DNA of 64,000 bases from Alloyangia pacifica (GTDB lineage Bacteria; Pseudomonadota; Alphaproteobacteria; Rhodobacterales; Rhodobacteraceae), in assembly GCF_003111685.1 (NCBI RefSeq), contig NZ_CP022190.1, forward strand, positions 830,001 to 894,000, read 5' to 3'. The translations under genes and the position numbers were made by a program. Positions within the stretch are counted from its first letter, which is position 1, and each line of letters starts with the position of its first letter. Positions 38,891 through 58,548 of the stretch are shown piece after piece. The notes under the pieces are model-generated. The model was given only the letters and a program-made list of their open reading frames with translations, made no database searches and was not told where the DNA came from.

Positions 38891-39095
38891 GGTCCTGCAC
38901 TCCTAGTGGCGTCTGTCGCCCTTGGTATAGGCCTCGGCCCGGCGCTTTCAAACCCCCCGAAACCGTTTGCTTTTCCAGCTGTGGGCAGTCCCCCGAAGGC
39001 GCGCATGGGAAAGCGAGACGCAAGGTTCAAGATGCCTGCGCAAAAATCCGCTGGACAGTTACAGAATCTTCATGTGTTGTGGGCAACGGAATTTG

Positions 39096-39132
39096 GGTCG
39101 GCCAACCGGATACGATGTCCGGCAGGCCGACC
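39096..39132. other. Nested hairpin in the gene-free stretch
   Basis: GGTCGGCC (39096-39103) pairs with GGCCGACC (39125-39132), and inside it CCGGA (39106-39110) pairs with TCCGG (39118-39122). The two stems are separated by two-base internal bulges. There is no T-run on either strand, so it is not a standard terminator. Confidence 0.5.
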
Positions 39133-39482
39133 AGGAAGATGGCGCTTTGGGAGGAGTGGCCATCTTCAGCGATCCGGTCGCCCCTTGGGAGGTGTTGGGG
39201 CGGCCGGATACTTTTCTTACAGGATATGCAGCCAGGGGACGCAAGCCGCTTCCTCGCAAAATCGCGGATCCAGCACCCCGCTCGCAAGGCCGAGAAAACA
39301 ATTGCTCATTTCATGGGCAATTGCGCCCGGTCCCAGAGCGGCGAGGAGACCGTCGCGGCGAGCAGAGTCGGGGGCACGGCGCGCCAGCGGCCACCAAGCG
39401 CTTTGCCAGGGATCGCACCTCCGCGCGCCGCCCGAGATGCGTGCCATGCGCTCAGTTCAGAGCGGGTCTGCAATCCTGTACA

Positions 39483-39510
39483 TTGTTCGCGGCCGTGAGA
39501 ATGGCTAGTT
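39483..39510 (+). promoter_or_regulatory. Candidate promoter of the first cuckoo RNA
   Basis: TTGTTC (39483-39488), 16-base spacer, CTAGTT (39505-39510). The second copy of the RNA is preceded by TTGCCC, a 16-base spacer and CTAAAT, the same geometry and a similar distance to the first hairpin. Confidence 0.4.
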
Positions 39511-39516
39511 TCATTT

Positions 39517-39625
39517 CACGACGCAGCGATGCGTCAACGGGTTTCCTGGAACTCTCTCCTCCTCCCTGAGTTCCGGAAATTGGCGGCGATCCCCCTCCTC
39601 CTCCCTGGGATCGCCGCACTTCCCG
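39517..39625 (+). ncRNA. Small RNA with two CCUCCUCCC hairpin loops (cuckoo/CcsR type), copy A
   Basis: Two stem-loops expose the anti-Shine-Dalgarno sequence CCTCCTCCC. Hairpin 1: GGAACTC (39548-39554) with GAGTTCC (39568-39574), extended outward by TTTCC/GGAAA, and loop motif at 39558-39566. Hairpin 2: GCGGCGATCCC (39583-39593) with GGGATCGCCGC (39607-39617), loop motif at 39597-39605. A 5' mini-hairpin GACGC...GCGTC lies at 39520-39535. This double-loop layout is the cuckoo (CcsR) RNA family of Rhodobacteraceae, known for stress-linked expression in Rhodobacter sphaeroides. Ends are estimated. Confidence 0.8.
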
Positions 39626-39776
39626 CTCCCTCAAGCTTTGATCCGCTCCTTGGCACCGCGCACTGGGACCTCTGCGATTCTCCGCATCTCGGCGGTTTCC
39701 TTGTCCGGCGCGGAAGGGTAAGCCTTTCCGATATCCCGCCGAGGCACCGTCTCGGCCGTTCGAGACCGAGGCAGAC

Positions 39777-40679
39777 ATGAAACTCATCATCGATACCGAC
39801 CCCGGAGTCGACGACGCGCTGGCCATCCTCTACGCCGCCGCGCACCCACAGATCGAGCTGCTGGGGCTGACCACCGTGTTCGGCAATGTCACCGTGCAAC
39901 AGGCGACCCGCAACGCGCTCTACCTGGTTGAGCGCGCAGGGCTCGACATCCCCGTGGCCGAGGGCGCGTCCAAGCCGATGCAGCTGCCGCCCTTCACTCC
40001 AAGCCATCATGTGCACGGCCCCGAGGGGTTCGGCCACCTGCCCGAGATGGCCCCCAAGGGCACCAAGATCGACGAGAGCGCCGCCGAGTTCCTCGTGCGC
40101 ATGGCGCGCGCGCACAAGGGCGAGCTGGTGCTCTGTCCGATCGGCCCGATCACCAATGTCGCCGACGCCATCGCGCTCGATCCCGAGTTCGCTCGGAACT
40201 TGCGCGAAATTGTGTTCATGGGCGGGGCGCTCGACGCGCGCGGCAACATCACGCCCTACGCAGAGGCCAACACCTACCATGACCCGCATGCGCTCGACAT
40301 CGTGCTACAAAGCGGGGCAGAGATTCGCATGATCGGGCTCGACGTGACGATGGAGGTGCTGCTCACCGCAGAGGACTTCGAGGAACTCGAGCGGCGCGAC
40401 CCCGAGCATGGCGCCTTCCTGCGTGAGATGAGCCATTTCTATCTCGAGTTCTACCGCACTGTCGGCGCAGAGGGCTGCGGTCTACACGATCCGCTCGCCG
40501 TGATGGCCTGCGTCATGCCCGGGCTGGTGGGATTGGAGCACACGGCGGTGGACGTGGTGCTGGAAGGGCCGGAGATCGGCCGCACCCGCCGTGCGAGCGG
40601 GCGTCCCGAGATTGGCGTTGCGCTGAATTGCGACGGCGCCGACATCAAGCGGCGCTTCATAGCGAGTTTTGGGGGCTGA
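39777..40679 (+). CDS. Nucleoside hydrolase (IunH-like)
   Basis: This 300-residue hydrolase cleaves the N-glycosidic bond of nucleosides to free base and ribose. The calcium-binding signature 'DTDPGVDDALAIL' (residues 6-18) is intact, and 'GDLP...FLV' and 'NTYHDPHALDIVL' blocks fit the family. It is soluble, with no signal peptide. It lies 160 bases downstream of the small RNA, on the same strand, and ends at a strong terminator. Which nucleosides it prefers is unknown. Purine or pyrimidine salvage is likely. Confidence 0.9.
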   Translation: MKLIIDTDPGVDDALAILYAAAHPQIELLGLTTVFGNVTVQQATRNALYLVERAGLDIPVAEGASKPMQLPPFTPSHHVHGPEGFGHLPEMAPKGTKIDESAAEFLVRMARAHKGELVLCPIGPITNVADAIALDPEFARNLREIVFMGGALDARGNITPYAEANTYHDPHALDIVLQSGAEIRMIGLDVTMEVLLTAEDFEELERRDPEHGAFLREMSHFYLEFYRTVGAEGCGLHDPLAVMACVMPGLVGLEHTAVDVVLEGPEIGRTRRASGRPEIGVALNCDGADIKRRFIASFGG

Positions 40680-40749: not shown

Positions 40750-42639
40750 TCAGGACTGCGGAATGCCCTTGGGCGGCCCGAGCCGCTTCTGCGCGGCAAT
40801 TCGGAAGGGCGCGTTCGGCCCTCCGAAGCCCTTGTAGCCCGGGCCGCGCTGGATGATCTCAAAGAACATGCCGCCGGCGAAGGCACGGCTGTAGACCTGG
40901 AAGAACTCCGCCTCGCCCTCGCGGTCGTAGAGGATGTTTCCGGCCCGCAGCCTCTCGAGCAGCCCCTCGGGCATGTCGAAACGCGCGGCCAGGTCATCGT
41001 AGTAGTTGCCCGGGATCGGCAGTGGCTCGAAGCCGAGCTCCCCCATCCGCGCCACGGTGTCGAAGATATCCTCGGTCGACAGCGCGATGTGTTGGACCGA
41101 GGCGCCGAAGGTCGAGGCGAGAAAGCGGCCCGCCAGCGTGCGATGCGTCTCGGCGCCGTTGAGGGTGATCTTCAAGCGGCCCGCAGCGCTTTCAACAACC
41201 TGGCTGCGCACCAGCCCGTCGGGATCGATCACGTCGACCATGGGCGATTTCCTCATGTCGAAGAGCGTGCTGTAGAACAGCGTCCAGCTCAGCATGTCCT
41301 CATAGGACATCGTCTGCGCGAGGTGGTCGACATGGGTAATCCCGGCACCGGCGTGCGGCTCGGTCGGCAATGCGTCGAACTCTACGTCCCAGACTTCGTC
41401 GAGCCCGCTGGTGCGGTCGATGAAATGCAGAACCGAGCCGCCGAGCCCGCGGATCGCCGGGATTGCCAGTTCGCCCGGCCCAGTGGGCTGCGAGAAGGTC
41501 GGCGAGCCAAGCGCATTGGCGCGGGTCACTGTGTCCTCTGCGGAGGAGACCTGCAGGCCGATGTCGCACACCGACAGGCCGCGGGTGTTCCAGACGTGCG
41601 CGGCGTGCCCCTCGGTCTCGGAGTTCACCACGATGCGCACGTCGCCCTGCTGCCAGAGCGTGATCGCCTTGTTGCGGTGCTTGGCGGCGTTGCGGAAGCC
41701 GAGGGTGCGCAGCATGGCGGTCAGCGTCTCGACCTCGCCGTCGCGGGCGGCGAATTCGACAAAGCTGACATCCTCGGCGCGGACGCGCGGCGGGATAGCG
41801 GGCAGGTCGATGCGCGTCTCGGGCTCGGCGCGGCGCACGTCGTCCATCAGCGCGATCAGCGAGCGGTAGCCGTCCTGCGCCGTGGCGCGGGCATTGCTGC
41901 CGCGGAACTGGTCGTTGAAGATCTCGAGGCTGATCGGCCCGGTGTAGCCCGCCGCCATGACAGCCTGCATGAAGCGCTGCACCTCGAGATCACCCTCGCC
42001 GGGCATATTGCGGAAGTGGCGCGACCAGTAGAGCAGGTCCATGTCGATCGCGGGAGCGTCAGCGAGTTGCACGAAGAAGATCTTCTCGCCAGGGATCGCG
42101 CGGATCGACTCCGGATCCAGCTTGCGGCCCAGCGTGTGGAAGCTGTCGAGGATGATCCCGACATTGGGGTGATCGGCCTGGCGCACGATCTCCCAGGCGT
42201 CGCGGTGATCGTTGAAGTGACGGCCCCAGGCCAGCGCCTCGTAGCCAAGACGGATGCCGCGCTCGCGGGCGATCTCGCCCAGTTCGGCGAGGTCGCCCGC
42301 GGCCCGCTTGATGCCGCCCAGCGAGCGCGGGTGCACCGACGAGCAGATCAGGATCAGGTCAGTGCCAAGCTCCTGCATCACGTCGAACTTGCGCTTGGCG
42401 CGGTCAAAGGCCTTGGAGCGCAGCGGCTCAGGCAGGCATTCGAAATCTCGGAAGGGCTGGAACAGCGGGATCTCGAGCCCGTGGTCGCGGATCATCCGCC
42501 CCACGTCCCGCGCGCCACCATCATGGGCAATGAAATCCTGCTCGAAGATCTCGACGCCATCGAAGCCGGCGGCGGCGATGGCCTCGAGCTTCTCGGGCAG
42601 GGTGCCCGAGATCGAGACGGTGGCGATCGCGGTTTTCAT
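40750..42639 (-). CDS. quiC: 3-dehydroshikimate dehydratase, fused two-domain type
   Basis: This 629-residue enzyme converts 3-dehydroshikimate to protocatechuate. The N-terminal TIM barrel (about 1-270) carries metal ligands Glu134 ('GYEALAWG'), Asp165 ('ILDSFHTLG'), Gln191 and Glu239 ('SLEIFNDQFRG'), the positions known in fused QuiC enzymes. The C-terminal part (about 290-629) resembles 4-hydroxyphenylpyruvate dioxygenase (VOC) repeats ('LPTEPHAGAGITHVDHLAQTM', 'SVQHIALSTEDIFDT'), as in Pseudomonas QuiC1. It is the last gene of an operon with a TRAP importer and a shikimate-dehydrogenase-like enzyme. Confidence 0.9.
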   Translation of the reverse strand: MKTAIATVSISGTLPEKLEAIAAAGFDGVEIFEQDFIAHDGGARDVGRMIRDHGLEIPLFQPFRDFECLPEPLRSKAFDRAKRKFDVMQELGTDLILICSSVHPRSLGGIKRAAGDLAELGEIARERGIRLGYEALAWGRHFNDHRDAWEIVRQADHPNVGIILDSFHTLGRKLDPESIRAIPGEKIFFVQLADAPAIDMDLLYWSRHFRNMPGEGDLEVQRFMQAVMAAGYTGPISLEIFNDQFRGSNARATAQDGYRSLIALMDDVRRAEPETRIDLPAIPPRVRAEDVSFVEFAARDGEVETLTAMLRTLGFRNAAKHRNKAITLWQQGDVRIVVNSETEGHAAHVWNTRGLSVCDIGLQVSSAEDTVTRANALGSPTFSQPTGPGELAIPAIRGLGGSVLHFIDRTSGLDEVWDVEFDALPTEPHAGAGITHVDHLAQTMSYEDMLSWTLFYSTLFDMRKSPMVDVIDPDGLVRSQVVESAAGRLKITLNGAETHRTLAGRFLASTFGASVQHIALSTEDIFDTVARMGELGFEPLPIPGNYYDDLAARFDMPEGLLERLRAGNILYDREGEAEFFQVYSRAFAGGMFFEIIQRGPGYKGFGGPNAPFRIAAQKRLGPPKGIPQS

Positions 42640-57874: not shown

Positions 57875-57930
57875 GCCTGACGCGGTCCTCGCACGCCCCG
57901 AACCCTCCGTTCGTGGTCATTCTGTCAGGC
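57875..57930 (-). promoter_or_regulatory. Possible expression-platform stem of the nrdH riboswitch
   Basis: On the plus strand GCCTGAC (57875-57881) and GTCAGGC (57924-57930) are complementary and lie between the B12 box and the nrdH start. A stem here could alternate with the aptamer or hide the start region. This is inferred from pairing only. Confidence 0.35.
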
Positions 57931-58085
57931 CTTCGGCAGGTCTCCTGGCTTGGCGGGTCGTGGGTCCGGCCGCGCCTTCCCGGGATGTCCCAGTGGCTCA
58001 TTGGGCCTTCACTCGCCGCTTACAGTTGCGGGGGCAGCACCGGTGTTACACCGGTTTCCCTCTTAGCGCCGCGCCGGGCCGTCGC
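57930..58085 (-). promoter_or_regulatory. Cobalamin (B12) riboswitch upstream of nrdHIEF
   Basis: Conserved parts in minus-strand order: GGAAACCGGTGTAACACCGG (plus 58040-58059), GCTGCCCCCGCAACTG with TAAGCGG (58016-58038), GAGCCACTG (57991-57999) and the B12 box AAGCCAGGAGACCTGCC (57935-57951). Spacing and order fit the cobalamin riboswitch family. Class Ib reductase does not need B12, so repression by adenosylcobalamin would make physiological sense. Confidence 0.93.
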
Positions 58086-58106
58086 CCGACTCGATGAACC
58101 GAAAAG

Positions 58107-58122
58107 CAACTATATCTAGAAC
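58107..58122. promoter_or_regulatory. NrdR box 1 upstream of nrdHIEF
   Basis: CAACTATATCTAGAAC matches the core of the NrdR consensus acaCwAtATaTwGtgt (10 of 16 positions). It overlaps the likely -10 region of the nrdH promoter. The second box is exactly 31 bases away. Confidence 0.72.
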
Positions 58123-58321: not shown

Positions 58322-58432
58322 CCTGTCGACGCGGCAACGCGTTCAAGGATTTTTTCGGGGTGTTTCTCCTCCTCCCTCAGCCCCGGAAATCGGCGGCGGC
58401 CCTTCTCCTCCTCCCTTGGGGCCGCCGCATCC
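58322..58432 (+). ncRNA. Small RNA with two CCUCCUCCC hairpin loops (cuckoo/CcsR type), copy B
   Basis: Paralogue of copy A. A 5' mini-hairpin GACGCG-GCAA-CGCGTT (58328-58343) has a GNRA-type loop. Hairpin 1 pairs 58352-58362 with 58378-58389 (one bulged G, one G-U pair) and has CCTCCTCCC at 58368-58376. Hairpin 2 pairs GCGGCGGCCC (58393-58402) with GGGCCGCCGC (58419-58428), with CCTCCTCCC at 58407-58415. Sequence differs from copy A mainly in paired positions, as expected for RNA structure. Ends are estimated. There is no DUF1127 gene beside it. Confidence 0.8.
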
Positions 58433-58548
58433 TCCCTTCCTCCGCAAGCTTCCTGATAGGCGCGCGCCGCCAAGCGATCTGGCTTTCGCCCGCCCGCGCG
58501 CATATGCAGACATCACGCACCGTCAGTTCAGCCCTGCAGGAGGTCCGC

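What the first reader, a model, noticed from the sequence alone, without database searches (positions are those of the whole stretch)
39517..39625. First of two cuckoo/CcsR-like small RNAs, anti-Shine-Dalgarno loops
Two hairpins in a row each expose CCTCCTCCC in the loop, and the stems are perfect (7 bp extended to 12, and 11 bp). This is the hallmark of the cuckoo (CcsR) RNAs of Rhodobacteraceae. The loops could bind ribosome sites (GGAGG) of messages or proteins that normally bind those sequences.
Basis: partly seen in the sequence, partly recalled or inferred. Interest (0 to 1): 0.75.

Follow-up and report, generated by a model that had tools for sequence, protein, structure and literature searches.

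The report
Cuckoo small RNA with mirror-image partner
The sequence very probably encodes a small regulatory RNA that can cover ribosome-binding sites, and next to it lies a second conserved RNA-like element whose loops are complementary to it, suggesting a regulator sitting beside its own decoy.

Summary
In detail: 39540-39617 folds into two hairpins that show CCUCCUCCC in 13-nt loops, and 53 distinct solitary copies from the genus covary in both hairpins and in a 5' hairpin at 39520-39535. It is cuckoo-type, but not a CcsR locus: it is solitary, the neighbouring products tested are not DUF1127, and it has its own conserved promoter-like block. The genome's DUF1127-plus-array locus lies elsewhere. 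I accepted 19 such elements in 16 of 20 genus genomes; 17 lie 141-680 bp from a solitary cuckoo. CTGGAC-N15-RTGT lies upstream on + in 16 of 19; CTGGAC lies on the other side in 0. My reading: a cuckoo sRNA paired with a sponge, working like CrfA/SisA of Caulobacter. Transcription and the element's strand are inferred; its hairpin 1 fits the other strand better and its covariation is weak.

The parts
39483..39511 (+). promoter-like TTGTTC-N17-TAGTTT of the cuckoo RNA, at the end of a conserved block (GCCATGC...GGTCTGCA...TTGT...CTA)
   Evidence: Conserved in 7 loci of the same arrangement and in the alignment of 51 solitary copies. A strict sigma-70 consensus scan found no promoter in 38950-39780.
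39518..39620 (+). predicted cuckoo-type sRNA; the 5' end is inferred from the promoter, the 3' end is not known
   Evidence: Fold z -5.8; CcsR1 58.2 bits, ar14 51.8 bits; covariation in 53 copies.
39520..39535 (+). 5' hairpin GACGCA-GCGA-TGCGTC
   Evidence: helix 1: 90.9% of cells paired, 4 of 6 pairs with changes on both sides.
39540..39581 (+). cuckoo hairpin 1, CCTCCTCCC loop at 39558-39566
39583..39617 (+). cuckoo hairpin 2, CCTCCTCCC loop at 39597-39605
39051..39081 (+). promoter-like motif of the complementary element, CTGGAC-N15-ATGTGTTGTG
   Evidence: Same spacing in 16 of 19 accepted elements; CTGGAC within 150 nt on the other side in 0 of 19, shuffled sequences 4.2%.
39096..39132 (+). 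element hairpin 1; no SD-like loop here, but GGGAGG-type loops in other copies
   Evidence: Its A.C mismatches fit the - strand better.
39135..39167 (+). element hairpin 2, loop GCTTTGGGAGGAGTG, with an 8-nt perfect complement of the cuckoo loop
39172..39209 (+). element hairpin 3, 13-bp stem, loop TTGGGAGGTGTT, 6-nt complement of the cuckoo loop
39299..39323 (.). inverted repeat CAATTGC-N11-GCAATTG between the two RNA elements; operator-like
   Evidence: Conserved island in the 7-locus alignment, coordinates; function not tested.

Best explanation
Window 39518-39620 encodes a solitary cuckoo-type sRNA transcribed from its own promoter; its CCUCCUCCC loops pair with GGAGG ribosome-binding sites and so lower translation of target mRNAs. 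About 330 bp upstream of its hairpins, on the same strand, roughly 39087-39212 encodes a three-hairpin RNA that presents complementary GGGAGG(A/U)G loops and sequesters the cuckoo RNA by loop-loop pairing (a sponge). Shown here: sequence, folds, covariation of the cuckoo, conservation of both elements, their linkage in one genus, and conserved promoter-like motifs. Inferred: transcription, strand of the element, mRNA pairing and the sponge function.
For: Cuckoo RNA. Element: 19 accepted copies in 16 of 20 genus genomes, 17 of 19 within 141-680 bp of a solitary cuckoo, 9 same strand upstream and 8 convergent, none divergent or downstream. The four weakest (27.3-36.6 bits) were accepted after I had seen their loci; without them 14 of 15 are linked and 12 of 15 have CTGGAC. 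Plus strand: CTGGAC-N15-RTGT on the + upstream side in 16 of 19, CTGGAC on the other side in 0 of 19; + upstream flank more conserved than downstream in 28 of 30 within-group pairs at 60 nt, 22 of 30 at 100 nt; lower fold energy on + in 12 of 13 copies folded, window included, control cuckoos 20 of 29 on their sense strand; hairpins 2 and 3 hold 22 G-U against 3 C.A pairs read on +. Loop pairing with the cuckoo loop is stronger than with a recalled 16S anti-SD tail for 32 of 36 loops of 14 copies, 3 weaker, 1 equal. No CsrA found in this genome. Precedent: CrfA, whose G/A-rich loop sponges four sRNAs with a UUUCCUCCCU core (PMC12559287).
Against: Element hairpin 1 has 17 C.A against 5 G-U pairs read on +, so it fits the - strand better; over all three hairpins 27 G-U against 20 C.A is only a mild lead. 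Covariation of the element is weak: on 10 copies 2 of 22 pairs changed on both sides, 86 of 500 shuffles as high, and RNAalifold on 14 copies recovered hairpin 3 but not hairpins 1 and 2 as drawn. On the - strand ar14 scores 38.4 bits, below its cut-off of 58.8. No fitting intrinsic terminator on either strand. 40 of 57 solitary cuckoos have no accepted element within 1 kb, and two of 19 elements lie 6.9 and 57 kb from a cuckoo. An alphaR8-type core would pair almost as well with several loops, and a few loops pair no better than their shuffles. No expression data.
Confidence: 0.55

Rival explanations
1. The element at 39096-39209 is transcribed from the - strand and is a second, divergently transcribed and diverged cuckoo RNA with ACUCCUCCC and CACCUCCC loops.
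For: ar14 38.4 bits on the - strand; hairpin 1 pairs better on the - strand, 17 C.A against 5 G-U pairs read on +; a GTTGC-like block downstream on + could be a - promoter (my reading of the alignment).
Against: CTGGAC on the + upstream side in 16 of 19 against 0 of 19 on the other; hairpins 2 and 3 favour + (22 G-U, 3 C.A); + folds better in 12 of 13.
Confidence: 0.2
2. The element is a + strand RNA, but its SD-like loops sequester the 30S anti-SD or an RNA-binding protein (for example a DUF1127 protein) rather than the cuckoo RNA.
For: Hairpin 3 of the window copy pairs slightly better with the 16S anti-SD tail (-14.1) than with the cuckoo loop (-12.6); CcaF1-type proteins bind RNA (PMC10253847, passages).
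Against: 32 of 36 loops pair better with the cuckoo loop; linkage to solitary cuckoos (17 of 19); no CsrA found.
Confidence: 0.12
3. The cuckoo RNA works mainly by binding protein or Hfq rather than by covering mRNA ribosome-binding sites (this concerns the cuckoo alone and does not exclude the other readings).
For: Loop flanks stay alike in copies whose stems differ, which fits a protein as well as a generic SD target; the loop core itself was the selection criterion and is no evidence.
Against: Relatives are described as acting on mRNAs: NfeR1 by prediction through this motif, CcsR1-4 on flhR mRNA (PMC10746234 and PMC8307010, passages).
Confidence: 0.1
4. The inverted repeats act as DNA (operators or cruciforms) or are unexpressed remnants.
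For: No strong sigma-70 consensus and no fitting intrinsic terminator; an operator-like palindrome nearby; weak covariation of the element.
Against: Compensatory change in the cuckoo stems; homology to expressed families.
Confidence: 0.04

Closest known systems
CcsR1-4 / cuckoo RNAs with CcaF1 (Rhodobacter sphaeroides), Rfam RF02791
   Same: Two hairpins, each with CCUCCUCCC in the loop; best Rfam match (58.2 bits).
   Different: Solitary, own promoter-like block, a short 5' hairpin with a GCGA loop, no DUF1127 gene or tandem array found here; below the gathering score.
ar14 / NfeR1 (Rhizobiales), Rfam RF02344
   Same: aSD-loop sRNA with its own conserved promoter (PMC10746234, passages); 51.8 bits.
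   Different: ar14 has three hairpins that each carry the motif (same passages); here two carry it and the third is a short 5' hairpin.
CrfA sponge of SisA-D (Caulobacter, PMC12559287)
   Same: A G/A-rich loop complementary to the C/U-rich anti-SD core of an sRNA family; model for the element's proposed action.
   Different: CrfA acts on alphaR8 RNAs through its second stem loop; here two to three such loops, encoded beside a cuckoo gene. Sequence relation was not tested.
MmgR / alphaR8 under PhaR (Sinorhizobium)
   Same: aSD-type sRNA; its PhaR site CAATTGTGCACCGCAGCATTA (PMC12542648, passage) resembles the box in many solitary cuckoo promoters.
   Different: Other RNA structure; the window's own two cuckoo promoters lack a good box.

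Membership tests
CcsR1 (RF02791) / CIN1-locus cuckoo RNA | two hairpins with CCUCCUCCC loops | tested here: met
CcsR1 (RF02791) / CIN1-locus cuckoo RNA | Rfam gathering score 65.3 | tested here: not met
   58.2 bits; 0 of 20 genus genomes have a match over it, the DUF1127 array copies of this genome included, so the test does not discriminate.
CcsR1 (RF02791) / CIN1-locus cuckoo RNA | downstream of a ccaF1 (DUF1127) gene, tandem copies from one transcript | tested here: not met
   Only one copy here. Of the products around it, 7 tested and 4 are not DUF1127; not every small ORF was tested. The DUF1127 gene with its array lies on C1.
CcsR1 (RF02791) / CIN1-locus cuckoo RNA | RpoHI/RpoHII promoter and stress induction | not testable with these tools
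   No expression data; RpoH-type sites were not scored.
ar14 (RF02344) | three hairpins, each with CCUCCUCCC | tested here: not met
   Two hairpins carry the motif; 51.8 bits against 58.8.
sRNA sponge (functional class: CrfA, QrrX) | loops complementary to the seed of an sRNA | tested here: met
   8-nt perfect complement in the window copy, up to 11 nt in others, provided the + strand is the transcript.
sRNA sponge (functional class: CrfA, QrrX) | sequestration or decay of the sRNA in vivo | not testable with these tools
   Needs bench work.
CsrB/RsmY-type sponge of CsrA | a CsrA protein in the genome | tested here: not met
   No PF02599 match in the genome at E <= 0.001; 3 of 14 control genomes ring.

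The most novel reading that the evidence does not exclude
One genus (Salipiger, by coordinate matches of two members) carries a two-RNA module: a solitary cuckoo anti-SD sRNA and, within 0.7 kb, a dedicated multi-loop anti-cuckoo sponge. The sponge may have arisen by inverted duplication of a cuckoo gene read from the other strand, and in many copies both promoters may answer to one PhaR-type regulator of polyhydroxybutyrate metabolism.
Probability: 0.4. Interest if true: 0.75.

Novelty: new variant of a known kind. Interest (0 to 1): 0.6.

Why it matters
Cuckoo RNAs carry a generic anti-Shine-Dalgarno motif, and what keeps such RNAs in check is, as far as I know, open. A dedicated complementary RNA beside the cuckoo gene would be a direct, testable answer, would give alphaproteobacteria a second case of the CrfA type of control, and would offer natural loop pairs for testing loop-loop sequestration. 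A possible PhaR link would extend the mmgR/PHB connection to another anti-SD RNA family.

Tried and rejected
CsrA-type sponge: no CsrA found in the genome. Ordinary CcsR locus: none of 11 neighbouring products tested is DUF1127. Element outside the genus: model R1 over 295 family genomes, with stricter filters, matched only 2 genomes, both of this genus; the model is narrow, so distant relatives may be missed. Rfam at gathering score: only a cobalamin riboswitch in the window. Intrinsic terminators: one weak match that overlaps the cuckoo promoter, 0.9 expected by chance; mean T fraction after the last hairpin 0.32 on + and 0.28 on -. StsR as cuckoo sponge: the passages of PMC8307010 seen report no strong effect on CcsR1, and the word sponge does not occur in its main text. 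PhaR for this very locus: the window's two copies have at best 2 mismatches to CTGC-N3/4-GCAG, so that link is claimed only for other copies.

Rows dropped or left out: 3 of the 22 places (two overlap an ordinary cuckoo on the opposite strand; one, G006:C5:546287, 27.3 bits, has no CTGGAC in the 100 nt shown). Of 168 CcsR1 matches summed over the genomes the list was cut; I copied 150 into. My rule for 'solitary' also counts a few copies that may be array remnants or at contig ends (for example G011:C51, G001:C23). One search used 14 of the 19 elements, left out hairpin 1 of group 1, and counts identical loops more than once. In one search the automatic stem finder misassigned some stems (hairpin 2 of G012 and G017, hairpin 1 of G011 and perhaps others); they are in the counts. 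The three group 2 copies have no CTGGAC. The confidence of the best explanation was lowered from 0.58 to 0.55 on rechecking, because the weak covariation of the element had been left out.

Literature: I found no report of a sponge of cuckoo, CcsR or NfeR1 RNAs, which cover open papers only; PMC4615179, PMC4402390 and PMC8034643 were not held. PMC12542648, PMC10746234, PMC10253847, PMC8307010, PMC7866481 and PMC3927594 were seen as search listings and passages only.

Full report
OBSERVATION. The motif CCTCCTCCC lies at 39558-39566 and 39597-39605. In the window it occurs 5 times against 1.26 expected, and 1 of 100 shuffles reached 5. The stretch 39515-39640 folds at -51.4 kcal/mol, z -5.8, 0 of 200 shuffles as stable; both motifs are wholly in 13-nt loops. 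A third, 5' hairpin GACGCA-GCGA-TGCGTC lies at 39520-39535.

COVARIATION OF THE CUCKOO. I aligned 53 distinct solitary copies, the window's two among them, and counted pairs for the structure derived from the first window copy: 93.3% of 1583 cells paired (shuffled 86.9), 18 of 30 pairs changed on both sides (shuffled 11.9; 1 of 500 as high), 144 cells with such changes (shuffled 47.5, sd 8.8; 0 of 500 as high), covariation score 0.318 (slid versions at most 0.128). 'Further pair types' did not exceed shuffles (374 of 500 as high). All three helices take part. The loop motif does not vary, but copies were selected by it, so that is no evidence; shuffles do not keep relatedness.

FAMILY. Rfam CcsR1 gives 58.2 bits (gathering 65.3) and ar14 51.8 (58.8). 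With CcsR1 all 20 genus genomes match and none passes the gathering score; the five listed array copies of this genome, which follow a DUF1127 gene (PF06568, 49.6 bits; array), score 42.8-50.9. The window copy scores above these, so the missed cut-off says little. By locus, however, it is not of the ccaF1-CcsR type: it stands alone between a molybdopterin-binding-domain gene and a nucleoside hydrolase gene, and none of 11 neighbouring products tested is DUF1127. I file it as a solitary cuckoo-type RNA.

THE NEIGHBOUR. At 39096-39209 three hairpins follow each other. Read on the + strand, hairpins 2 and 3 carry GGGAGGAG and GGGAGGTG, complementary in part to the cuckoo loop. Seven loci of the same arrangement keep both RNA stretches as conserved islands. 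Model R1, built from hairpins 2 and 3 of ten copies, found 22 places in 17 of 20 genus genomes; I accept 19 in 16 genomes. Among 295 family genomes only two matched, both of this genus. In other copies hairpin 1 also carries GGGAGGAGGA-type loops. Covariation of the element is weak: on the ten copies 94.9% of cells paired (shuffled 93.9), 2 of 22 pairs changed on both sides (86 of 500 shuffles as high), covariation score 0.120 (12 of 500 as high; slid versions at most 0.081); on a 14-copy alignment RNAalifold recovered hairpin 3 but not hairpins 1 and 2.

LINKAGE. By my rule (fewer than three matches within 1.5 kb) 56 of the 150 CcsR1 matches that I copied from the cut list are solitary; with one more from BLAST this makes 57. 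Of 19 elements, 17 lie 141-680 bp from one of them: 9 upstream on the same strand, 8 convergent, none divergent or downstream. The exceptions lie 6.9 kb and 57 kb away. The four weakest elements (27.3-36.6 bits) were accepted after I had seen their loci; without them 14 of 15 are linked. Conversely 40 of 57 solitary cuckoos have no accepted element within 1 kb. A hairpin scan around 51 distinct copies found isolated GGAGG-loop hairpins at many loci and, away from elements, a close group only at L129; at some true elements it found just one, so it is not a sharp test.

WHICH STRAND. For +: CTGGAC within 150 nt upstream in 16 of 19, within 150 nt downstream in 0 of 19 in either orientation, shuffled 4.2%; in all 16 it is followed after 15 nt by RTGT; the + upstream flank is the more conserved in 28 of 30 within-group pairs at 60 nt (one lower, one tie) and in 22 of 30 at 100 nt (six lower, two ties); the + fold is the more stable in 12 of 13, control 20 of 29 cuckoos. 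Core stems, distinct ones only: hairpin 3 has 13 G-U and 0 C.A, hairpin 2 has 9 and 3, hairpin 1 has 5 and 17; cuckoo control 41 and 23. Hairpin 1 thus speaks for the - strand. An earlier count on 14 copies gave 40 and 22, its control 58 and 36. Pairs inherited together are not independent. I put the + strand at about 0.8.

HOW IT MAY WORK. Of 36 loops from 14 of the 19 elements, 32 pair better with the cuckoo loop than with a recalled 16S anti-SD tail, 3 worse (the window's hairpin 3 among them) and 1 equally; an alphaR8 core comes close for several. No CsrA was found in the genome. CrfA of Caulobacter sponges four sRNAs with a UUUCCUCCCU core through a G/A-rich loop (PMC12559287: outline and abstract, passages, results section 7 and the first of two parts of the discussion). 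NfeR1 (ar14) is described with three aSD hairpins and its own regulated promoter (PMC10746234, passages). CcsR1-4 come from one transcript with ccaF1 (PMC10253847, passages).

PROMOTERS. The 51 distinct solitary copies share a promoter block. A CTGC-N3/4-GCAG box is exact in 20 and has one mismatch in 9 of 51, against 0.5% and 8.6% in shuffles; 22 of 51 have two or three mismatches. This is the PhaR site given for R. sphaeroides, and mmgR, another aSD-type sRNA, carries a similar PhaR site (PMC12542648, passages). The genome has a PhaR gene (PF07879) with similar boxes upstream. The window's two copies have only 2-mismatch sites. Of 19 elements, 11 have a box with at most one mismatch in 150 nt on the + upstream side (shuffled 14%), and 6 on the other side, two of these being the neighbouring cuckoo's own box. 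The pattern YTGC-N3-GCAGCA occurs 101 times in this genome against 22 for its reversed control, so the box is not specific to these RNAs. The PhaR link is a lead, not a result for this locus.

VERDICT. The cuckoo RNA is a new member of a known kind; with its complementary neighbour the pair is a new variant. Transcription, strand and function of the neighbour remain to be shown.

Noticed in passing
window 58349-58433: Second solitary cuckoo RNA (CcsR1 43.8 bits), in front of an ORF whose product looks like an asparaginase (my reading of the sequence, not tested).
   Followed up: partly
window 57918-58118, - strand: Cobalamin riboswitch, 125.7 bits, the only Rfam match over its cut-off in the window.
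   Followed up: no
window 39299-39323: Inverted repeat CAATTGC-N11-GCAATTG, conserved between the element and the cuckoo RNA; looks like an operator.
   Followed up: partly
L061-L063, between the element and the cuckoo: In three convergent loci a small ORF (56 aa, MTFFNREQ... or MTLFNREQ...) behind an RBS-like AGGGAGAGG lies between the two RNAs on the element's strand; the copy tested has no Pfam family over its cut-off.
   Followed up: partly
L018 (G000:C1:1054000-1060000): DUF1127 gene followed by an array of about six cuckoo hairpin pairs, the CIN1-type locus of this genome.
   Followed up: yes
window 40750-42639, - strand: 629-aa protein joining a xylose-isomerase-like TIM barrel to a hydroxyphenylpyruvate-dioxygenase-type domain.
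   Followed up: no
L193 (NZ_CP014597, Salipiger sp. CCB-MM3): One element copy lies 6.9 kb from the nearest cuckoo, with several genes between. No listed gene covers either RNA, but the PLSDB table lists no RNA genes.
   Followed up: partly
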